This document shows, one piece after another, positions 24,888 to 35,734 of a stretch of 64,000 bases of DNA; position 1 is the first letter of the stretch; each line of letters opens with the position of its first letter. The notes beneath the pieces were generated by a model. It had not been told where the DNA came from and searched no databases. It worked only from the letters and a program-made list of their open reading frames with translations. Source of the DNA: Sinorhizobium medicae. GTDB taxonomy: Bacteria; Pseudomonadota; Alphaproteobacteria; Rhizobiales; Rhizobiaceae. The stretch covers positions 248,001 through 312,000 of the forward strand of contig NZ_VITA01000007.1 in NCBI RefSeq assembly GCF_007827695.1. The letters run 5' to 3'. The position numbers and the translations under genes were made by a program.

Positions 24888-24979
24888 TATAGATATTTTC
24901 TTGTGGCGCGCAAGTTGGAAATAAAGGAAAACAATTCCTGATTTCCGGCCCCGGCGGGCGGTCGCATATGGAGCATCGA

Positions 24980-25723
24980 ATGGCGGTATTGGGGCGCAGG
25001 AGCGATAGGGCGGTCTTCGACGACGGACCGGTGCCGCGCTATGAGGCGGTCAAGCAGTTCATCCGGAGCCGCATCGAAAGCGGCGAGTGGCCGCCACACC
25101 ATCGCATTCCTTCCGAAAACGATATCGTCGCCGATCTCGGCGTCAGCCGCATGACCGCCAATCGCGCCCTTCGCGAGTTGGCGAGCGAGGGAGCGATCAC
25201 GCGGGTACAGGGGGTGGGATCGTTTGTCGCTGCCCATAAAGGAAGCACGGCCCTTCTGGAGGTCCGCAATATTGCCGACGAGATCCGCGAGCGCGGCCAC
25301 AGGCATACCTCGCGGACAGCGCTCATGGAAGAGGAGCAGGCAAGCCCCGAAATCGCGGAGGCGCTCGGGCTTACGACTAAGGCGCGGGTCTTTCACTCGA
25401 TCATCGTTCATGCGGAGAACGACGTTCCGATCCAGATCGAAGACCGCTTCGTCAATCCCGCAATCTGCCCCAATTATCTGGAACAGGATTTTGCCAGCAT
25501 GACCCCGAACGTCTATCTGACCCTGGTGGCGCCGATCACGCGCACGGAGCAGATCGTCGAGGCCGTGCAGCCAAAGCCGTGGGAATGCAAGCTTCTTTCG
25601 ATCAGCCGCGGCGAGCCGTGCCTGATGATCCGCCGCCGGACCTGGTCGGAAACCGCGAATGTGACGGTCGCACGTCTTGTTTATCCGGGCACACGCTATC
25701 GTCTCGAGGGTGTTTCGCAGTAA
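24980..25723 (+). CDS. hutC: HutC, GntR-family repressor of histidine utilisation
   Basis: The ~247-residue protein has an N-terminal GntR winged helix (VPRYEAVKQFIRSRIESGEW, then SRMTANRALRELASEGAITR) and a C-terminal UTRA effector domain (NVYLTLVAPITRTEQIVEA, GEPCLMIRRRTWS). HutC represses hut genes and is released by urocanate. ATG 24980 has GGAG six bases upstream; ATG 24968 would add four residues. It is divergent from hutF and 32 bases ahead of the large kinase/PLP gene, so it may also control that gene or share a transcript with it. Confidence 0.93.
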   Translation: MAVLGRRSDRAVFDDGPVPRYEAVKQFIRSRIESGEWPPHHRIPSENDIVADLGVSRMTANRALRELASEGAITRVQGVGSFVAAHKGSTALLEVRNIADEIRERGHRHTSRTALMEEEQASPEIAEALGLTTKARVFHSIIVHAENDVPIQIEDRFVNPAICPNYLEQDFASMTPNVYLTLVAPITRTEQIVEAVQPKPWECKLLSISRGEPCLMIRRRTWSETANVTVARLVYPGTRYRLEGVSQ

Positions 25724-25755: not shown

Positions 25756-28683
25756 ATGGTAGACGAATTGCTGAAGCACCGGACGCAGCTTGCAAGACCG
25801 GACGTGTCGACCGACGAAGCGCAGGCGGTCCTGGCCCAACACTACGGTCTTTCCGGTGATCTTGCCGAACTCGGCAGCCAGCAGGATCGCAACTTCCGCG
25901 TCGACGCAGACGAAGGGCGTTTCGTTCTGAAGGTAACGCGCGTCGAATATGCGCGGGTGGAGATCGAAGCCCAGAATGCCGCATTGCGGCATGTCGGCGC
26001 AAAGCCCGGCGCGCCGAAAGTGCCGGAAGTGGTGCCCTCTCTCGGCGGTGAGGACATCGTCTCCGCAGCCGTTCGCGAGGAGACCTATCATGTCCGCTTG
26101 CTCACCTATCTCGAGGGTAGCCCTCTGACGCGCCGCAGGCACCTGGGCGCTGAATCGGTGGCGGCACTCGGCGATGTTGCGGGACAACTCGCCGCCGCAC
26201 TCAAGGATTTCGATCATCCTGGGCTCGAACGAGAGCTGCAATGGGACCTCAGAAGGGCGGGGCCGGTCGCGCTGCACCTGCTTTCGGCCATGGCCGACGT
26301 GGACCTGCGCAAGCGCATTGCCGAGGCGATGATCGGTGCGATGCGCAAAGTTCAGCCCTTGATGCCGGAGCTGCGCCTGCAGGCGGTCCATCAGGACGTT
26401 ACCGACGACAATGTCGTGAGCCGGGTGGACAGCGGCGGGCGGCTCATCCCCGACGGTGTCATCGATTTCGGCGACGTCCTGAAGGGCTGGGTGGTCGCCG
26501 ATCTCGCCGTCACCTGCGCATCGTTGCTGCACCATGCGGGCGGCGATCCCTTCACTATCCTGCCGGCGGTGAAGGCGTTCCATGCGGCTTACCCGCTGAC
26601 CGATGCCGAATTGACGGCCCTCTGGCCGCTGATCGTCGCACGCGCCTGCGTTCTCGTCGCGAGCTCGGCGCACCAGCTCGAGGTCGATCCGGAAAATGCC
26701 TATGCCGCAAGCAATGCCGCGCATGAGCGGGAAATCTTCGACGTTGCGGTTTCGGTGCCGAACGAGCTGATGGAGCATGCGATCAGAAAAGCTGTGGCAA
26801 GGGAACGGCAGCCAGCGCCATCCGAGATGCACGGCCGCCTGTTGCCGGACCTCAATGCCGCAAGTGTCGGCATCGTCGATCTCTCCGTGCTCGGGCCGCA
26901 CCTTCCTGCCGATCGCTGGCACTACGAGGACACCGAAGCGCTGCTCCTGCAGTCGGCGGCGCGCGCGGCCGGCGCCGCGGCAACCCGCTATGGCGAGTAC
27001 CGGCTTACCGAAACGCGGCTCCTGCAGGCAAGCGCGCCACGAACATTCGCGCTCCACGTGGATTTGTGCCTACACGGGCAGACCGCCGTGCATGCGCCTT
27101 TCGCGGGCCGGCTCCACCAGGGCGGCGGCAAGCTGATCCTCTCGGGAGAGGGTCTTCACCTCCATCTTTACGGTGTCGAGGCGGACGATCCTGCCGAAGG
27201 TACGTTGGAGCCGGGCGCGAGGATCGGATTGGTCCCCGGCGAACCGTCCGCATTGAGGTTCCTGCGCGTACAGCTTTGCACTGTGCTGGATATGGATCCG
27301 CCCGCCTTCGCTGCCCCGCATCAGGCGGAGGCATGGGGCCGGCTCTGCCCATCGCCTGAGACGATCTTGGGTTTCGGATGCGATGCGCCCTTGCCTGACG
27401 CAGCCGCGCTCCTGCAGCGCCGTCACCGGCATTATGCACGGCCGCAGAAGAACTATTATCGCATGCCGCCGCAGATCGAGCGCGGGTGGAAGGAGCACCT
27501 CTTCGACCTCGAGGGGCGCGCCTATCTCGACATGGTCAACAATGTCACGCTCGTCGGCCACGGGCACTCCCGATTGTCCGCTGCGGTCGGGCGGCAATGG
27601 TCCTTGCTCAACACCAATTCGCGGTTTCACTATGCCGCCGTGGCGGAATTCTCGGAACGCCTGGCGGCACTGGCGCCAGAGGGGCTCGACACGGTCTTTC
27701 TCGTCAACAGCGGTTCGGAGGCGAACGATCTCGCCCTCCGGCTCGCCTGGGCCGCTTCCGGCGCGCGCAATGTAGTCTCGCTACTCGAGGCCTATCACGG
27801 CTGGACGGTTGCAAGCGACGCCGTTTCCACCTCGATCGCCGACAACCCGCAAGCGCTGACGACGCGTCCGGACTGGGTGCATCCGGTCGTCTCACCGAAT
27901 ACCTATCGCGGTCCGTTCCGCGGGGAGGGATCGACGGGCGACTATGTGGATGCCGTCTCTCGAAAGCTCCGGGAACTCGACGAGAAGGGCGGGAAGCTCG
28001 CCGGCTTCATCTCAGAGCCCGTCTACGGCAATGCCGGAGGCATTCCGCTTCCGCCGGGCTATCTGGAAGCGGTCTATGCCCTGGTGCGAGCGAGGGGCGG
28101 CGTCTGCATCGCCGACGAGGTGCAGGTCGGCTACGGCCGGCTCGGCCATTATTTCTGGGGTTTCGAGCAACAGGGCGTGGTGCCCGATATCATCACCGTC
28201 GCAAAGGGTATGGGCAACGGCCACCCGCTGGGCGCCGTGATCACCAGGCGCACAATTGCCGATGCGCTGGAGGAGGAAGGCTATTTCTTCTCCTCGGCCG
28301 GCGGCAGCCCCGTGAGTTCGGTGGTCGGCCTGACCGTCCTCGACATCCTTCACGACGAGGCCCTGACGGAGAATGCCCGGTCCGTGGGCGACTACCTCAA
28401 GGGGCGCCTCGAGGCGCTCGTGGAGCGGTTTCCGCTCGCCGGCGCCGTTCACGGCATGGGGCTCTATCTGGGCGTCGAATTCGTCCGGGACCGCGAAACG
28501 CTCGAACCCGCCACGGAAGAGACGGCCGCGATCTGCGACCGCCTTCTCGACCTCGGCGTTATCATGCAGCCGACCGGAGACCATTTGAACGTCCTGAAGA
28601 TCAAGCCGCCGCTCTGCCTCGCCCGGGAGAGCGCGGATTTCTTCGCCGACACGCTGGGCAGGGTGCTCGAAGAGGGGTGGTAA
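25756..28683 (+). CDS. Kinase-LytM-like-class III PLP enzyme fusion (copy 1, intact)
   Basis: The 975-residue protein has three parts. Residues ~1-380 are an APH/choline-kinase-type kinase (HQDVTDDN at ~212, VIDFGDV at ~234). Residues ~390-520 are a decayed LytM/M23-like beta domain without the zinc HxH. Residues ~540-975 are a class-III aminotransferase fold (NSGSEANDLALRLAW; PLP lysine in VAKGMGNGHPLG, ~817). In animals, APH-type hydroxylysine kinase and class-III ammoniophospholyases act in series on hydroxylysine or phosphoethanolamine, so a two-step amino-alcohol pathway in one chain is the best inference. AAGGA precedes ATG 25756. Confidence 0.85.
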   Translation: MVDELLKHRTQLARPDVSTDEAQAVLAQHYGLSGDLAELGSQQDRNFRVDADEGRFVLKVTRVEYARVEIEAQNAALRHVGAKPGAPKVPEVVPSLGGEDIVSAAVREETYHVRLLTYLEGSPLTRRRHLGAESVAALGDVAGQLAAALKDFDHPGLERELQWDLRRAGPVALHLLSAMADVDLRKRIAEAMIGAMRKVQPLMPELRLQAVHQDVTDDNVVSRVDSGGRLIPDGVIDFGDVLKGWVVADLAVTCASLLHHAGGDPFTILPAVKAFHAAYPLTDAELTALWPLIVARACVLVASSAHQLEVDPENAYAASNAAHEREIFDVAVSVPNELMEHAIRKAVARERQPAPSEMHGRLLPDLNAASVGIVDLSVLGPHLPADRWHYEDTEALLLQSAARAAGAAATRYGEYRLTETRLLQASAPRTFALHVDLCLHGQTAVHAPFAGRLHQGGGKLILSGEGLHLHLYGVEADDPAEGTLEPGARIGLVPGEPSALRFLRVQLCTVLDMDPPAFAAPHQAEAWGRLCPSPETILGFGCDAPLPDAAALLQRRHRHYARPQKNYYRMPPQIERGWKEHLFDLEGRAYLDMVNNVTLVGHGHSRLSAAVGRQWSLLNTNSRFHYAAVAEFSERLAALAPEGLDTVFLVNSGSEANDLALRLAWAASGARNVVSLLEAYHGWTVASDAVSTSIADNPQALTTRPDWVHPVVSPNTYRGPFRGEGSTGDYVDAVSRKLRELDEKGGKLAGFISEPVYGNAGGIPLPPGYLEAVYALVRARGGVCIADEVQVGYGRLGHYFWGFEQQGVVPDIITVAKGMGNGHPLGAVITRRTIADALEEEGYFFSSAGGSPVSSVVGLTVLDILHDEALTENARSVGDYLKGRLEALVERFPLAGAVHGMGLYLGVEFVRDRETLEPATEETAAICDRLLDLGVIMQPTGDHLNVLKIKPPLCLARESADFFADTLGRVLEEGW

Positions 28684-28744
28684 CAATCGAGACGCCGGAT
28701 GAGGGCGGAAAACCGCAGACACGTGTCCGCATCCCGCTCTCAGT

Positions 28745-29755
28745 TCAGCGGACCGGCGGAGCGTAAATCAGGCCACCGGCGTTCCAGAGCTTGTTGAGGC
28801 CGCGATCGATCTTCAGCGCGCTCGCCTGGCCGAGGTGACGCTCGAAGATCTCGCCGTAATTGCCGACGGCCGAGACCACCTGATAAGCCCAATCCGGATT
28901 GAGGCCGAGCGCCCTGCCGGCTTCGTTGTCGACGCCGAGAAAGCGTTTTTGCGCGACGGTCCCGCTTTCAAGAAGCGACGCGGCCGACTCCAGGGTGATA
29001 CCCAGTTCCTCCGCTTCTACCATCGCGAAGAGTGTCCAGCGAACCACTTTGAACCACTGGTCGTCGCCTTGCCGGACGGCAGGGCCGAGCGGCTCCTTGG
29101 AGATGACCTCCGGCAGGACGACGAAGCGGTCGGGATCGTTGAGCGTCATCCGCTGGGAATAGAGCGCGGAGGCGTCGGTGGAATAGACGTCGCAGCGGCC
29201 GGCGTTGAAGGCCCGGATCGTTTGGTCGGCCTTTTCGAAGGCGATGACCTTGTACTCGATCTTGTTGGCGCTGAAATAGTCCGCCATATTCTGCTCGGTC
29301 GTGGTGCCGGTCTCGGTGCAGACGGAAGCGCCGGAGAGCTCCTTGACGCTTTTGACGCCGATATCGTCGCGCACCATGAAGGCCTGGCCGTCGTAATAGG
29401 TCACGCCGACGAAGCTCATGCCGAGATCCGTATCGCGCGACAGCGTCCAGGTGGTCTGGCGCGACAGCAGATCGACCTCGCCGGACTGCAGGGCAGTAAA
29501 GCGTTCCTTGGTCGAAAGCGGCACATATTTTACCTGGTCCGCGTCGCCGAGGGCGGCGGCCGCGACCGCGCGGCAGAAGTCGATATCGAAGCCGGACCAC
29601 TCGCCCTTGTCATCAGGGGCAGAGAAGCCGAGCACGCCCTGGCTCACGCCGCAACGCAACTCACCGCGCTGCTTGACGACGTCGAGGGTCGCGGCCTGCG
29701 TTGCGGTGCCGGCAAGAAGCGCCGCTGCAAAGAGTGCCGAGATTCCGGTTTTCAT
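28745..29755 (-). CDS. Polar amino-acid ABC transporter binding protein (AapJ-like)
   Basis: The 336-residue family-3 solute-binding protein has a signal peptide (ISALFAAALLAGTATQA) and the domain start GELRCGVSQGVLGFSAPDDK. Other matching segments are WSGFDIDFCRAVAAAALGD and NMADYFSANKIEYKV. It matches the AapJ type that feeds broad amino-acid importers. No permease or ATPase gene lies beside it, so it must use a transporter encoded elsewhere. ACGGAGGAG lies before ATG 29755. It sits between two paralogous kinase/PLP fusion genes and could deliver their substrate. Confidence 0.9.
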   Translation of the reverse strand: MKTGISALFAAALLAGTATQAATLDVVKQRGELRCGVSQGVLGFSAPDDKGEWSGFDIDFCRAVAAAALGDADQVKYVPLSTKERFTALQSGEVDLLSRQTTWTLSRDTDLGMSFVGVTYYDGQAFMVRDDIGVKSVKELSGASVCTETGTTTEQNMADYFSANKIEYKVIAFEKADQTIRAFNAGRCDVYSTDASALYSQRMTLNDPDRFVVLPEVISKEPLGPAVRQGDDQWFKVVRWTLFAMVEAEELGITLESAASLLESGTVAQKRFLGVDNEAGRALGLNPDWAYQVVSAVGNYGEIFERHLGQASALKIDRGLNKLWNAGGLIYAPPVR

Positions 29756-29856
29756 GGTCCTGTTCTCCTCCGTTTTTGGACGCAATTCCTCGCTCCGGCG
29801 CACGCATCGTTGCGCCGGATGGCTCTGGTGGTTCGGTGATGTCTTTACGTCGAGCT

Positions 29857-32800
29857 CTATCCGGCTCGCGCGAGCACGGCCTCGAATGTCTCCGCGAGCA
29901 CGGCGATCAGGTGATCGGCATCGCGCTTCGAAAAGATCATGGGCGGACGCATCTTCAGGACATTGTCATGCGGTCCCTCCGTGCCCATCAGGACGCCGCG
30001 CTGCCGTGCTCCGTTCGAGACGGCCCGGGCGATCTCCGTCGCCGGCGCCTTGGTGCTTCGGTCGCTGACGAGCTCTATGCCGAGAAAGAGGCCGAGACCC
30101 CTGATGTCGCCGATGACCTCATAGCGCTCCTGCATCGAGCGGAAGGCGGCAAGGAGATAATTGCCGATCTCAAGGGCGTTGCGGCGCAAGTCTTCGCCTT
30201 CGATGACGTCGAGCACGGCGAGGCCGGCGGCGCAGGACACGGGATTGCCGCCGAAGGTGTTGAAATATTCCATGCCGTTGTCGAACGAGGCCGCGATCTC
30301 ACGCGTGGTGACCACGGCGGCGAGCGGATGACCCGCGCCGATCGGCTTGCCCATTGTGACGACGTCGGGGACGACGCCTTGCGTTTCGAAGGCCCACCAA
30401 TGGCTGCCGACCCGGCCGAAACCGACCTGTACCTCATCCGCGATGCAGACGCCCCCGGCGTCCCGAACCATGCGGTAGACCTCCTTGAGGTACCCGTCCG
30501 GCAGAAACACCTGGCCTGCGACGCTGGGAATGGACTCGGCGAGGAAAAAGCCGGGCGCTTCGCCTCTGGCACGCATGGCCGCGATCAGTTCGGCGATGTC
30601 TTCTGCAAAGCGTTTGCCATGCTCCTCGGCCGGCCAATCGGCGGGGGCGTGATAACTGTCCGGGACGGCTGCCACGTGCACATGCGATTTTGGACCCCTT
30701 CCGCCCTTGCGGCGAAATTTGTAAGCGCTGAGATCGATCAGTTCCTGCGTCGTGCCGTGATAGGCCCAGTCGAGCACGAGAGCGTTTTCGCGGCCCGTGT
30801 GCGCACGCATCAGGCGCAGGGCGAGGCTGTTGGCTTCGGAGCCGCTATTGGCGAAGGCGGCAATCGCGAGTTCCTTCGGCAACGTCGACGTCAGCCGCTC
30901 GGCATAGGCGACGATATTATCGTGGAGGTAGCGCGTGTTGGTATTGAGCGTTGCGGCCTGGCGCGCGATCGCTTCCACCACGGCCGGATGGGCGTGACCG
31001 ATGTGGCAGACATTGTTGAAGCAGTCGAGATAGGCGCGACCGCGATCGTCGATGAGCCAGACGCCTTCGCCGCGCACGAACTTTATCGGCTTTTCGTAGG
31101 AGATCGACAGGTTCGAGAGCAGCAGGTCCTTTCGAAGCCTGACGATTTCCTCATGGGTGCGGCCGGTCTGCTCGTAGAATTCCGGAGCAACACCGGCAAA
31201 TGCGCTTGCGTCGGGGAAAAGTTCTGACCAGACGTCGAGATAGCGTTCCTCGCCCACGCCCAGGATTTCCGACGCCGAAAGGCCCGTGTCCGTGCAGATC
31301 TGCAGATGCAGATGCGGCGCCCAGCCGCCGTTTTCCTCCGGAGCGCCCATTTCGCCGACGAGCGCGCCGGCCTCCAGCGTGTCGCCGGCCTTCAGCCGAC
31401 CGACAGCTTCATGGGCAAGATGTCCCCAGAGCGTCAGGAAGGGCGGGCAACCCTCCGGTTCATGGCGCAGCGCGACAAGGCAGCCATAGCCGAGCGGATC
31501 CGTCTCGATCTCGACACTCGCGACCGTCGCCGCGAGCGGCGTATAGACCTTCGTGCCTGCAGCCTTGAAGAGGTCGAGGCCGAGATGGCGCGAGCGGCGG
31601 GTCTTCTCGAGCAGGCGCGAGACGAACATTTCGCCCGAATAGACGGTGCGGGGCCTCACCCCAGGGACCGATGCCGAGCTCGACACCGGTACCACGGCAA
31701 TGCTCCGTCCAAACCGATTGCGCCTCATGCGGCCGCGCCGCTGCCGAATTTACGGTCATCGGATGCGCAGGGTCGCCATAGGGGACAATGTCGGCGGCAT
31801 AGGCTGCGGCTGGACGGTCGAGAAGCGCCAGCAGGTTCTTGCGGTTGCGGTCGATCCAGGCGCCGACGGCGCGGGCGCCGGCGACAGCCTCGAAACCGCA
31901 GGCCTTTCTCAGGATTGCCGTCGCGAAGCGCGGGTTCATCGCATCGAGCTTGCGCAGGAGCGCCCAGGCCGGCCTTTCGCTGATCGCGAGGTAAGGGTTG
32001 CCACCGGTATGCGCCCGACGCGAGGCGGAGATCGTCACCGAGGTCACCAGTCGCATGGCGATCAGGTCGAAGAGGAGGTCGACTTCCTCTTCGAGGAGTG
32101 GGTATTCGGCGTGATAACCATTGGCGATCGCAGCGGCCGCGCCGATCGGATCGGGATGATCGAGCCCGGCATAGGCGGCCGCGATGGCGACTTCAGCCAT
32201 GACGGGCGTATAGAGGGCATCGCCGAAGTCAATGATGCCGGAGATGCGGTTGCGATCGTCCTCACCGACGAGCACGTTCCAGTCGTTCGCGTCGTTATGG
32301 ATGACGGCCGAACGCAGCATCGGCAGCCGCGGGGCGATGCGCTCTTCGAACCGATCGATAAAGCGTTGAAGAAGAGCACGATCCTGGGGATCGGCGACAT
32401 GCAGGAGCCGCCCGGCAGAGCGTCCGGCATTGCGGATGTCCCAGTCGAGATCGCGAAGTGCGCCAGGATGCATGAAGCCCTTGAGCGAGGCGTCGAAGCG
32501 GCCGAGCATGTGGCCGAGGGACCGAAGCGCCGCGTCGGTCCTTTCGGACTGGGCAAGCGGCATGCCCTCGATCCAGCTGACCAGGCGCAACCGGTGAACG
32601 AGGCCGCTCCTGGCGCTCGTCGTAGCCAGGCTTTCGCCGGATAAGGCAGGCTGCAGATGCGGCACCGGAAGAGTGTCGGCCCTGGCGCCGAGATGCGCCA
32701 GAAGGGCCGTCTGAAAATCGCTTTCGATTTCGGGCTCGGCCGCATTGATGATCTTCAGGATATAGCTGCGGCCGTCGCCGGCGCTGACTTTGAAGTTCTG

Positions 32801-32914
32801 GTCCCGCTCGCTGTCGAGCGGCGTGAGCGCCGCGTTCAGTCCGAAATGCTGCGCAAGGAGTGCTTGCGCCTCTTCGATCGTGAAATCGGGTGTCGTCTTC
32901 AGCATGTCGTTCAT
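29857..32914 (-). pseudogene. Kinase-LytM-class III PLP enzyme fusion (copy 2), frameshifted
   Basis: Two overlapping frames encode one protein of about 1,018 residues. The frame from ATG 32914 gives the APH-type kinase (VIHNDANDWNVLV, GIIDFGDALY); the frame ending at 29857 gives a LytM/M23 domain with its zinc motifs kept (HLGLD and HLHLQ) and a class-III PLP domain (NSGSEANSLALRLM; lysine in [12 protein letters not shown]). The break is at the CCCC run 31659-31662: removing one base joins the frames smoothly (GIGPWVRPRTVYSG). It may be a real mutation, a switchable tract or a sequencing error. The break falls between kinase and LytM domains, so two shorter proteins could still be made. Confidence 0.8.
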
Positions 32915-33052
32915 GGGAACCCTCGCTCTTGTCACGAGAGTTGCACGCCCGCCCGGCGGGTGCACCAGTCATTTCGCCGGTTGCACCGGCATTTTGTTTG
33001 TAATAACCGTCATTTTGCCGGCGCTTTCAATTCCGGCCGAAGGAGACGGAAA

Positions 33053-33478
33053 ATCGACGCTGTAGACAGAACAATCCTCAGCATTTTGAGCCGCGAGGCG
33101 CGCATTCCGATGAAGTCGCTGGCCGGGCGCATCGGTTTGTCACGCAGCGCGACGGCAGAGCGCGTCGCACGGCTGGAGAAGGCCGGTGTCATCCGCGGCT
33201 ACCGCGCCGATATCGGCCAGCTGGAAGAAGGGCAGATCGAGGCCTTCCTCCTGGTGACGCTGCAGCGGACGCCTTCGCTTGGCGTGCTTGACCGGCTCGC
33301 CGGGTTTTCCTCGGTCAGGCGGGTCTCCTCCGTCAGCGGTCAGCTCGACCTTATCGTGGAGGTGGAGGTCGCATCGATCAATGCGCTCAACGAGTTGCGC
33401 AACGAGGTTGCGCAACTCGACAATGTCGAGGATCTGACCACCTCGATCGTGCTGCGCCGCGACATCGAGCGAGGCTGA
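33053..33478 (+). CDS. AsnC/Lrp-family regulator with unresolved, possibly ATC, start
   Basis: The ~141-residue protein has an AsnC helix-turn-helix (AVDRTILSILSREARIPMKS, GLSRSATAERVARLEKAGVI) and a RAM ligand domain (VRRVSSVSGQLDLIVEVEV). A strong ribosome site GAAGGAG (33039-33045) is seven bases before ATC 33053, exactly where AsnC proteins begin. No ATG, GTG or TTG exists there in frame; TTG near 32981 would add 24 odd residues, and ATG 33110 would remove part of the helix-turn-helix. It is divergent from the copy-2 fusion gene and probably its regulator. Confidence 0.75.
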   Translation: MDAVDRTILSILSREARIPMKSLAGRIGLSRSATAERVARLEKAGVIRGYRADIGQLEEGQIEAFLLVTLQRTPSLGVLDRLAGFSSVRRVSSVSGQLDLIVEVEVASINALNELRNEVAQLDNVEDLTTSIVLRRDIERG

Positions 33479-34690: not shown

Positions 34691-35734
34691 ATGGCCATTG
34701 CACGAGGATATGCGGCGACGGACGCTTCGAAGCCGCTCGCCCCCTTCACCTTCGAACGCCGCGAGCCGCGCGACGACGACGTGGTGATCGACATCAAATA
34801 TTGTGGCGTCTGCCATTCCGATATCCACCAGGCGCGTGACGAATGGGGCAACTCGACTTTTCCCATGGTTCCCGGTCACGAAATCGTCGGGCTCGTCAGG
34901 GCGGTCGGCTCCAAGGTCACGAAATTCAAGATCGGCGATCGGGTAGGGGTTGGCTGCTTCGTGGATTCCTGCACGACCTGCGCCACGCGCGATCTCGACC
35001 TGGAGCAGTACTTGCCCGGCCTTGTGGTCACATATAACGGCGTGGAGGCCGACGGGACTCCGACGCAGGGAGGTTATTCCGACCATATCGTCGTCAAGGA
35101 GGGTTATGTGCTCTCCATTCCGGAGAACCTGCCGCTCGATGCAGCCGCACCGCTGCTTTGCGCCGGCATCACGCTCTATTCGCCGCTGCGTCACTGGGAG
35201 GCCGGCCCGGGCAAGAAGGTGGCGATCGTCGGCATGGGCGGCCTCGGCCACATGGGCGTGAAGCTCGCCCATGCGATGGGGGCGGAGGTCACGGTGCTCA
35301 GCCAGACGCTTTCCAAGAAGGAGGATGGGCTCAAGCTCGGGGCCGATCACTACTACGCGACGAAGGATCCGGAGACGTTTACGAAGCTCGCGGGCAGCTT
35401 CGACCTCATCATCTGCACGGTCGCGGCCGAGATCGACTGGAACGCCTATCTCAACCTCCTGAAGATCGACGGCGATCTGGTGCTGGTCGGCATTCCTGAG
35501 AATCCGGTTCCGGTCCATGCCTTCTCGCTCGTGCCGGCACGGCGCAGTATCTCCGGTTCGATGATCGGCTCGATCAAGGAGACGCAGGAGATGCTGGATT
35601 TCTGCGGCGAGCACGGCATCGCTTCGGAGATCGAGATGATCGAGATCGGGCAGATCAACGAGGCTTACGAACGCGTGGTGAGAAGCGACGTACGCTACCG
35701 CTTCGTCATCGACATGGCCTCGCTCAAGGCCTGA
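34691..35734 (+). CDS. Zinc-type NAD(P)-dependent alcohol dehydrogenase (YahK/CAD-like)
   Basis: The 347-residue medium-chain dehydrogenase has catalytic zinc ligands CGVCHSD and GHEIVG, and the Rossmann motif [12 protein letters not shown]. It resembles the YahK/cinnamyl-alcohol type, which reduces aldehydes with NADPH. The structural-zinc lobe keeps DSCTTC, but the third and fourth cysteines of the usual set are replaced (ATR and QYL), so this zinc is probably absent, as in some proteobacterial relatives. The divergent AraC gene is its likely activator. Confidence 0.9.

What the first reader, a model, noticed from the sequence alone, without database searches (positions are those of the whole stretch)
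25756..32914. Paired kinase-LytM-phospholyase fusion proteins: a probable one-chain amino-alcohol degradation system
Two very large paralogues face each other across a polar amino-acid binding protein. Each joins an APH-type kinase, a LytM/M23-like beta domain and a class-III PLP enzyme. In animals, hydroxylysine kinase (APH family) and the class-III ammoniophospholyases act one after the other on hydroxylysine or phosphoethanolamine. Fusion would channel a phosphorylated amino alcohol to elimination of phosphate and ammonia. The LytM domain is the unexplained part: zinc motifs HLGLD and HLHLQ are kept in copy 2 but lost in copy 1, so the paralogues may have split roles.
Basis: partly seen in the sequence, partly recalled or inferred. 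Interest (0 to 1): 0.72.

Follow-up and report, generated by a model that had tools for sequence, protein, structure and literature searches.

The report
Kinase–phospholyase fusion pair in Sinorhizobium
A root-nodule bacterium carries two very large enzymes, each joining a kinase, a peptidase-like domain and a phosphate-and-ammonia-removing enzyme, and relatives elsewhere suggest that such fusions break down hydroxylysine, an amino acid known chiefly from collagen.

Summary
The pair is real, with one correction: copy 2 is broken by a frame shift near 31650 in this assembly; intact single-frame copies exist in four relatives. The host is a Sinorhizobium. Copy 1 belongs to NCBIfam NF004800 (PRK06149); copy 2's two pieces cover NF004799 (PRK06148). 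The fusion is thus catalogued, but I found no tested function. The PLP domains fall with the phospholyases (human ETNPPL, bacterial A1RDF1), apart from transaminases; both kinases keep their catalytic motifs. The M23 zinc motifs are complete in 16 of 16 copy-2-type domains and in 0 of 19 copy-1-type domains. The best substrate evidence lies outside the window. A sister set (kinase–lyase without M23) lies beside beta-galactosidase, galactose, saccharopine-pathway or piperidine-6-carboxylate dehydrogenase genes in 7 of 13 loci, against 1 of 56 counted loci of other make-up. That points to (galactosyl-)5-hydroxylysine. For the window's own subfamilies the context is weak: copy 2 has an amino-acid-binding protein and an Lrp regulator; copy 1 follows hutC. 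Hydroxylysine is likely, not shown, for copy 2; copy 1 may have diverged. The role of the M23 domain remains open.

The parts
24968..25723 (+). hutC-type GntR/UTRA regulator, 32 nt upstream of copy 1, probably co-transcribed
   Evidence: Pfam GntR + UTRA; a gap of 24-33 nt to copy 1 in 16 of 17 Sinorhizobium loci; no hutC match in the 17th, L043
25756..28683 (+). copy 1, kinase - degenerate M23 - PLP phospholyase-like protein, 975 aa (NF004800/PRK06149)
   Evidence: NF004800 1605.6 bits against cut-off 973
25804..26808 (+). copy 1 kinase domain (APH), with HQDVTDDN and VIDFGD kept
26809..27405 (+). copy 1 middle domain: M23 homologue without complete zinc motifs
   Evidence: no Pfam hit; hhalign E 3.6e-19 to the M23 domains; His of HxxxD and second His of HxH lost in 19 of 19 rows
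27406..28680 (+). copy 1 class-III PLP domain; PLP lysine K817; NVLK motif
   Evidence: that K817 is the PLP lysine is inferred from the family motif
28745..29803 (-). polar amino-acid solute-binding protein, 53 nt downstream of copy 2 on the same strand
   Evidence: SBP_bac_3 60.2 bits; 66% identical to the binding protein beside the Rhizobium-family copy-2 orthologue L122
29857..31650 (-). copy 2, C-terminal piece: M23 + PLP domain (frame of ORF 29857-31728)
   Evidence: homology to relatives begins at residue 27
31652..32914 (-). copy 2, N-terminal piece: kinase and linker (frame of ORF 31460-32965); frame break near 31650
31916..32875 (-). copy 2 kinase domain (HNDANDWN, IIDFGD)
31234..31608 (-). 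copy 2 M23 domain with HLGLD (31573-31587) and HLHLQ (31300-31314)
   Evidence: Peptidase_M23 45.6 bits; motifs
29860..31143 (-). copy 2 class-III PLP phospholyase domain
   Evidence: phmmer 447 bits to human ETNPPL 6tor against 195 bits for the first non-phospholyase
32978..33478 (+). Lrp/AsnC regulator divergent from copy 2 (start approximate; the ORF call opens at 32657)
   Evidence: AsnC_trans_reg and HTH_AsnC; beside copy 2 in 4 of 4 Sinorhizobium loci with copy 2: L029, L036, L042, L043

Best explanation
Each protein is a one-chain kinase plus PLP-dependent ammoniophospholyase. The N-terminal APH-type kinase phosphorylates the hydroxyl of a small amino alcohol. The C-terminal class-III PLP domain then removes phosphate and ammonia from the phosphorylated product and releases an aldehyde. 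For copy 2 the likeliest substrate is 5-hydroxylysine, imported as an amino acid. It would give 2-aminoadipate 6-semialdehyde, which the genome's own piperidine-6-carboxylate (P6C) dehydrogenase (contig C4) and the aminotransferase beside it would carry to 2-oxoadipate. The M23 domain is an accessory: its zinc site is intact in copy-2-type proteins, where it may free the substrate from a conjugate, and it is a dead scaffold in copy-1-type proteins. Copy 1 keeps both catalytic cores, but its active-site loops are altered and it is tied to hutC, so its substrate may differ. Shown: domains, motifs, family placement, gene contexts. Inferred: the reactions, the substrate, the M23 role.
For: Copy 2's PLP domain scores 447 bits against human ETNPPL and 351 against phospholyase A1RDF1; the next solved protein scores 195. 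The model of the intact S. meliloti copy 2 (pLDDT 83) has 6tor as its best Foldseek match (48% identity, E 1.2e-37). Five transaminase/epimerase rows lie outside the lyases (100/99). Every phospholyase-like row printed has Lys at the NVLK position and no transaminase/epimerase row does. Kinase motifs are intact. Substrate: in 7 of 13 kinase-PLP loci lie LacZ, GalT/GalK, saccharopine-pathway genes or P6C dehydrogenase, against 1 of 21 kinase-M23-PLP, 0 of 10 copy-1-type and 0 of 25 non-fusion loci. L131 has P6C dehydrogenase (824 bits, cut-off 730), fusion and LacZ on one strand and GntR, GalT, GalK, SSF divergent. L130 has saccharopine-dehydrogenase and AlaDh_PNT proteins on the opposite strand. 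L044, a copy-1 orthologue, has an AmaA-like oxidase and P6C dehydrogenase 1.6-4.5 kb downstream. L124, kinase-M23-PLP, has P6C dehydrogenase about 7 kb downstream. The window's genome has a P6C dehydrogenase (823 bits) about 25 nt before a PRK06107-like aminotransferase. P6C dehydrogenase occurs in 17 of 20 fusion genomes against 65 of 377 others.
Against: The context signal comes from one clade (7 rows, 100/100) that is not the window's; its near-duplicate L192 (92% identical to L132), left out of that tree, lacks the markers, and 6 of the 13 kinase-PLP loci lack them. In the window's subfamilies the same markers were seen in 1 of 21 kinase-M23-PLP loci (L124), 0 of 10 copy-1-type loci and 1 of 61 named copy-1 loci (L044), besides a GH1 glycosidase in L122/L123. 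The nearest enzyme with a solved structure is a phosphoethanolamine lyase, not a phosphohydroxylysine lyase. The co-occurrence is not corrected for kinship: the 20 fusion genomes are 11 genera, and Rhizobiaceae-family genomes without a fusion often have P6C dehydrogenase too. Copy 2 is frame-shifted in this assembly. Copy 1 lacks the YKF motif of ETNPPL and most other fusions.
Confidence: 0.55

Rival explanations
1. Same chemistry, but on ethanolamine (or 1-aminopropan-2-ol): the kinase makes phosphoethanolamine and the lyase releases acetaldehyde, phosphate and ammonia, with the neighbouring zinc alcohol dehydrogenase (34691-35734) handling the aldehyde.
For: Human ETNPPL is the closest solved enzyme and groups with copy 2's clade. 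An alcohol dehydrogenase lies about 2 kb away. Amino-alcohol kinase plus phospholyase activities are classical in Erwinia (recalled).
Against: The alcohol dehydrogenase is in 16 of the 17 Sinorhizobium loci (L038 is too short to show it), and 12 of those 16 lack copy 2, so it is not tied to copy 2. The adjacent transporter part is an amino-acid binding protein. The contexts with a clear signal point to the aminoadipate-semialdehyde node.
Confidence: 0.25
2. Copy 1 has moved to a different substrate linked to histidine use: it would be expressed with hutC and act on an amino alcohol that arises in or enters the hut regulon.
For: hutC lies 24-33 nt upstream of copy 1 in 16 of 17 Sinorhizobium loci. 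In another lineage (L079) copy 1 lies next to more distant hutC (33%) and hutF (50%) homologues. The copy-1 clade has a long stem and changed active-site loops.
Against: In 43 of the 44 other named copy-1 loci no hutX, hutF or hutC match was found, nor hutC/hutF clusters within 7 kb in G188, G343, G367 and G401. I know of no histidine-pathway intermediate that fits the reaction well.
Confidence: 0.2
3. The PLP domains are ordinary class-III transaminases and the kinase acts on something else.
For: NCBIfam names PRK06149 'aminotransferase'; the Pfam family is Aminotran_3. For copy 1 the margin is smaller: A1RDF1 251 bits against 215 for the first non-phospholyase, dialkylglycine decarboxylase.
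Against: Tree placement. ETNPPL leads the first non-phospholyase by 252 bits for copy 2 and by 115 for copy 1. Lys at a position where the five usable transaminase/epimerase rows have Arg (two) or other residues (three).
Confidence: 0.05
4. In this particular strain copy 2 is a recent pseudogene, so only copy 1 works.
For: Two frames abut near 31650.
Against: dN/dS against S. meliloti is 0.128 (N piece) and 0.105 (C piece), no higher than in the intact pair L029/L036 (0.167), so the break is very recent or a draft-assembly error.
Confidence: 0.45

Closest known systems
NCBIfam NF004800 (PRK06149) and NF004799 (PRK06148)
   Same: Copy 1 passes NF004800 over its full length (1605.6 bits, cut-off 973); copy 2's pieces cover NF004799 end to end.
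   Different: Copy 2's pieces stay under the 1128-bit cut-off one by one because of the frame break. The models are named 'aminotransferase' and 'hypothetical protein'; I found no tested function.
Human O-phosphoethanolamine phospho-lyase ETNPPL/AGXT2L1 (6tor) and phospholyase A1RDF1 (5g4i)
   Same: PLP domain closest to both in sequence and, for the copy-2 model, in fold; shared NVLK motif; copy 2 shares YKF with ETNPPL.
   Different: The matched chains are 446-499 aa long, without room for kinase or M23. Copy 1 has altered loops and no YKF.
Hydroxylysine kinase HYKK/AGPHD1 plus PHYKPL/AGXT2L2 (animals)
   Same: Same two-step logic, recalled from Veiga-da-Cunha et al. 2012, which I saw only as a reference in PMC8154272 and PMC13406643.
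   Different: Separate proteins in animals (recalled). Their sequences were not compared: no such chain appeared among the solved-structure matches shown.
PbfA, (R)-1-hydroxy-2-aminoethylphosphonate ammonia-lyase
   Same: Another class-III PLP enzyme that is a lyase (PMC8154272: passages, and section 13).
   Different: Copy 1 scores 191 and copy 2 232 bits against its model, cut-off 525: not members.
Peptidase family M23 (LytM/lysostaphin type)
   Same: Copy 2's middle domain passes PF01551 (45.6 bits, cut-off 28.7) with both zinc motifs.
   Different: It lies inside a metabolic chain; copy 1's version lacks complete motifs.

Membership tests
NF004800 / PRK06149 | whole-protein score over the curated cut-off (973 bits) | tested here: met
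   copy 1: 1605.6 bits, positions 2-972 of 972
NF004799 / PRK06148 | whole-protein score over the curated cut-off (1128 bits) | tested here: inconclusive
   copy 2 is split: 548.9 and 1103.4 bits for the two pieces; intact proteins in the genus pass, e.g. 1682.5 bits for L009
class-III PLP phospholyases (ETNPPL type) | groups with ETNPPL/A1RDF1 and apart from transaminases | tested here: met
   copy 1's place as first branch inside the lyases may be affected by long branches, as the tree tool warned
class-III PLP phospholyases (ETNPPL type) | release of phosphate and ammonia from a phosphorylated amine | not testable with these tools
   needs purified protein
hydroxylysine kinase / PHYKPL pathway | route onward from 2-aminoadipate semialdehyde in the same genome | tested here: met
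   NF050084 823 bits, cut-off 730, in G000; the aminotransferase that follows scores 569.7 with PRK06107, under its cut-off of 617
hydroxylysine kinase / PHYKPL pathway | linkage to aminoadipate-semialdehyde genes in the window's own subfamilies | tested here: inconclusive
   1 of 21 kinase-M23-PLP loci (L124), 0 of 10 copy-1-type loci, 1 of 61 named copy-1 loci (L044)
hydroxylysine kinase / PHYKPL pathway | sequence closer to HYKK and PHYKPL than to ETNPPL or other kinases | not tested
   HYKK and PHYKPL sequences were not at hand
Peptidase M23 | HxxxD and HxH zinc motifs (copy 2) | tested here: met
   HLGLD, HLHLQ; the four positions are invariant in 16 of 16 copy-2-type rows of A2, which does not include the split window copy
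Peptidase M23 | HxxxD and HxH zinc motifs (copy 1) | tested here: not met
   19 copy-1-type rows, the window's included: His of HxxxD in 0, second His of HxH in 0, first His of HxH in 1 (L079), Asp in 15; a homologue, not a zinc peptidase
PbfA | NF049939 cut-off 525 bits | tested here: not met
   191.2 and 231.8 bits

The most novel reading that the evidence does not exclude
Bacteria have a hydroxylysine salvage pathway carried by fused kinase-phospholyases, in some lineages as a complete galactosyl-hydroxylysine cluster (beta-galactosidase, galactokinase, uridylyltransferase, kinase-lyase fusion, aminoadipate-semialdehyde dehydrogenase). In the copy-2 subfamily the M23 domain is a built-in zinc hydrolase that frees the amino acid from a conjugate, so that one chain does hydrolysis, phosphorylation and elimination. 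In the copy-1 subfamily the same domain has been retired to a scaffold and the enzyme has changed substrate.
Probability: 0.25. Interest if true: 0.72.

Novelty: new member of a known kind. Interest (0 to 1): 0.5.

Why it matters
Two catalogued families named 'aminotransferase' and 'hypothetical protein' (NF004800, NF004799) would get a testable function. The neighbourhoods of the sister fusions predict how bacteria use hydroxylysine, including the galactosylated form known from collagen; the listings of my ten searches of a library of open papers showed no such pathway, though several listings were capped and most subscription papers are not held. The consistent live/dead split of an M23 zinc domain inside a metabolic enzyme is an open question that this pair makes testable in a standard laboratory strain.

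Tried and rejected
Ordinary transaminase reading: rejected by trees, scores and motif; the margin is smaller for copy 1.

Lrp, binding protein and alcohol dehydrogenase as one conserved operon with copy 2: of the 13 Sinorhizobium loci without copy 2, 12 keep the alcohol dehydrogenase and the 13th (L038) is too short to tell; the binding protein is present in 2 of the 4 loci with copy 2, the Lrp gene in 4 of 4.

A full 2-oxoadipate operon in L124: its aminotransferase, acyl-CoA dehydrogenase and E1 genes stay below the curated cut-offs shown, so only the P6C dehydrogenase was used. LacZ beside the kinase-PLP fusions was first noted as irrelevant (note) and re-read as galactosyl-hydroxylysine after the galactose and lysine genes appeared. 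Sugar-type ABC transporter genes beside L138 and L140 were left uninterpreted.

What the marker count leaves out: L128 (M23-PLP), L200 (fusion without a detected M23, beside an NhaC homologue) and nine fetched loci in which my crude gene caller found no phospholyase gene at the centre (L146, L147, L151, L155, L162, L170, L171, L174, L180). Loci differ in length (6.7 to 20 kb). The 61 named copy-1 loci were checked apart for the same genes. L189-L208 were fetched by searching with two of the kinase-PLP proteins, so that set is not a random draw.

Searches for a function in print; others listed only part of their hits. One listed paper (PMC8249566, on Mycoplasma bovis) holds the word PRK06148 once and was not read. 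Papers looked into: PMC8154272 (passages and section 13) and PMC13406643 (passages). Veiga-da-Cunha 2012 is not held and is recalled.

The first tree contained one wrong reading frame (L090) and only one own-genome transaminase. It was rebuilt without L090 and the mis-called own L007 row, and with 12 near-duplicate rows dropped, among them L192, whose locus lacks the markers. One dN/dS comparison was in the wrong frame (19 codons) and was redone. The structure model of copy 1's middle domain was still unfinished and is not used.
Full report
What is there. The window comes from a Sinorhizobium/Ensifer genome: the best named relatives of copy 1 are S. meliloti 4H41 and Ensifer sp. USDA 6670 (both 87% amino-acid identity). 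Copy 1 (25756-28683, plus strand, 975 aa) is intact. Pfam finds an APH kinase and a class-III PLP domain in it, and NCBIfam places it in NF004800/PRK06149 with 1605.6 bits against a cut-off of 973. Copy 2 (minus strand) has an APH kinase, a Peptidase_M23 domain and a class-III PLP domain and matches NF004799/PRK06148 end to end, but in two frames that abut near 31650. In S. meliloti (L029), USDA 6670 (L036), LCM 4579 (L042) and S. kostiense (L043) the same protein is one frame. dN/dS of the two pieces against S. meliloti (0.128 and 0.105) is close to that of copy 1 (0.163), the binding protein (0.121) and an intact copy-2 pair (0.167), so the break is very recent or an error of the 68-contig draft.

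Surroundings. Copy 1 follows hutC by 24-33 nt in 16 of the 17 Sinorhizobium loci; the 17th, L043, has no hutC match. Copy 2 with its Lrp regulator is present in 4 of those 17 loci, and the binding protein in 2 of these 4. The alcohol dehydrogenase further on is found in 12 of the 13 loci without copy 2, the 13th being too short, so it is not part of the module. In Rhizobiaceae-family genomes L122 and L123, two close relatives of one genus, the copy-2 orthologue is followed by a binding protein (66% identical to the window's for L122), a second binding protein, a permease and a GH1 beta-glycosidase (554 bits, cut-off 478.5, for L122; 97% identical in L123).

The PLP domain. Against solved structures copy 2 scores 447 bits with human ETNPPL (6tor) and 351 with A1RDF1; the first non-phospholyase scores 195. 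Copy 1 scores 330 and 251, with dialkylglycine decarboxylase next at 215. In a 78-row tree the five transaminase/epimerase rows separate (100/99). The copy-1 clade is one 13-row group (100/100) on a long stem. Copy 2 sits in a 26-row group with ETNPPL and most kinase-PLP fusions (99/95). The tool warned of long-branch joining between the copy-1 clade and the transaminases, so copy 1's exact place is unsure. In one search every phospholyase-like row printed, both window copies included, has Lys at the NVLK position, and no transaminase/epimerase row does. Copy 2 also shares YKF with ETNPPL; copy 1 has SIAD there and altered flanking loops. An AlphaFold2 model of the intact S. meliloti copy 2 (mean pLDDT 83, pTM 0.59, 15 sequences) matches 6tor best (48% identity, E 1.2e-37).

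The kinase. Both copies keep the HxDxxxxN motif and IDFGD. No solved structure matches copy 2's kinase piece at E<=0.01. The two window kinases are 36% identical.

The M23 domain. It is an accessory: the loci hold kinase-M23-PLP, kinase-degenerate-M23-PLP, kinase-PLP and one M23-PLP protein, and elsewhere kinase and lyase are adjacent separate genes. In 16 of 16 copy-2-type rows the HxxxD and HxH positions are invariant. In 19 copy-1-type rows the His of HxxxD and the second His of HxH are lost in all, the first His of HxH is kept in 1 (L079) and the Asp in 15. The window's copy 1 does contain a string HLHL, but at another place of the alignment. The two sets are nevertheless homologous (hhalign E 3.6e-19). 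No function was found for the domain.

Substrate. The most telling evidence is the neighbourhood of the kinase-PLP fusions. Of 13 such loci, 7 carry LacZ (5), saccharopine-pathway pairs (4), P6C dehydrogenase (2) or GalT/GalK (2). For the same markers the 21 kinase-M23-PLP loci have 1 (L124, P6C dehydrogenase), the 10 copy-1-type loci 0, and the 25 loci without a fusion 0; among the 61 named copy-1 loci 1 has one (L044, P6C dehydrogenase). GH1, present in 2 of the 21, was not counted as a marker. L131 has, on one strand, P6C dehydrogenase (824 bits, cut-off 730), fusion and LacZ, and divergently GntR, GalT, GalK and an SSF transporter. L189 has the same set by similarity. L130 has LacZ and, on the opposite strand, saccharopine-dehydrogenase and AlaDh_PNT proteins; L190, L191 and L193 have their homologues at 56-60%. 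The seven rows form one clade (100/100) from 4 genera and 3 families, so they are not seven independent events; L192, 92% identical to L132 and left out of the tree as a near-duplicate, lacks the markers. That the AlaDh_PNT plus saccharopine-dehydrogenase pair is the lysine saccharopine route, that lysine by this route and hydroxylysine by kinase and phospholyase both give 2-aminoadipate semialdehyde, and that collagen hydroxylysine is often galactosylated are recalled. Together they make 5-hydroxylysine by far the best substrate for that clade.

Transfer to the window. The genome has a P6C dehydrogenase followed by a PRK06107-like aminotransferase (569.7 bits, under the cut-off of 617). A copy-1 orthologue (L044) lies next to an AmaA-like oxidase (474 bits, under the cut-off of 600) and a P6C dehydrogenase over its cut-off. 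A copy-2-type protein (L124) has P6C dehydrogenase about 7 kb away. Of 398 genomes of the phylum, 17 of 20 with a fusion have P6C dehydrogenase against 65 of 377 others (own genome set aside). Relatedness was not corrected: the 20 are 11 genera, and of the same-family genomes listed without a phospholyase-like hit several have it too. I therefore hold the chemistry as likely (about 0.85), hydroxylysine for copy 2 as somewhat more likely than not, and copy 1's substrate as open.

Known or new. The fusion families are catalogued. From recall, the 2012 paper that identified hydroxylysine kinase and the ammoniophospholyases began from such bacterial fusions; it could not be read here and was seen only as a citation. 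The listings of my ten searches of the held papers showed no tested function of these fusions. What is added here is the frame break, the subfamily-wide loss of the zinc site in copy-1-type proteins, the phylogenetic test and the (galactosyl-)hydroxylysine gene clusters of the sister fusions.

Noticed in passing
   Followed up: yes
L131 (G393:C5:68000-87900) and L189 (G566:C54:55000-74900): Apparent complete galactosyl-hydroxylysine clusters: P6C dehydrogenase, kinase-lyase fusion, LacZ on one strand; GntR, GalT, GalK, SSF on the other (L189 by similarity only).
   Followed up: partly
L122:14494-16194, L123:3720-5411, L137:13070-14722, L138:12546-14198: Polar amino-acid ABC permease ORF of 550-566 aa whose first 350 or so residues have no Pfam match in the two scanned (L122, L137); 70-72% identical between loci of two different fusion clades.
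   Followed up: no
L143:10508-11614, with homologues in L144 and L145: Agmatine deiminase (620.9 bits, NF010070, for L143) beside copy-1-type fusions in one genus, 3 of 4 loci.
   Followed up: no
L150, L159, L166-L169, L172, L173, L178: A second, more distant APH-type kinase (Pfam scan of L150's) near standalone phospholyases; L150, L169 and L178 also carry aldehyde dehydrogenases that are not P6C dehydrogenases. Possibly an ethanolamine-type route.
   Followed up: no
L128:9217-11295: M23-PLP protein without the kinase domain.
   Followed up: no
L079: A copy-1 orthologue in another rhizobial lineage also lies beside hutC- and hutF-like genes (33% and 50% identity).
   Followed up: partly
L138 and L140: Sugar-type ABC transporter genes (MalK/UgpC-like ATPase, SBP_bac_1 in L140) and LacI-type regulators beside a third set of kinase-M23-PLP fusions.
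   Followed up: no
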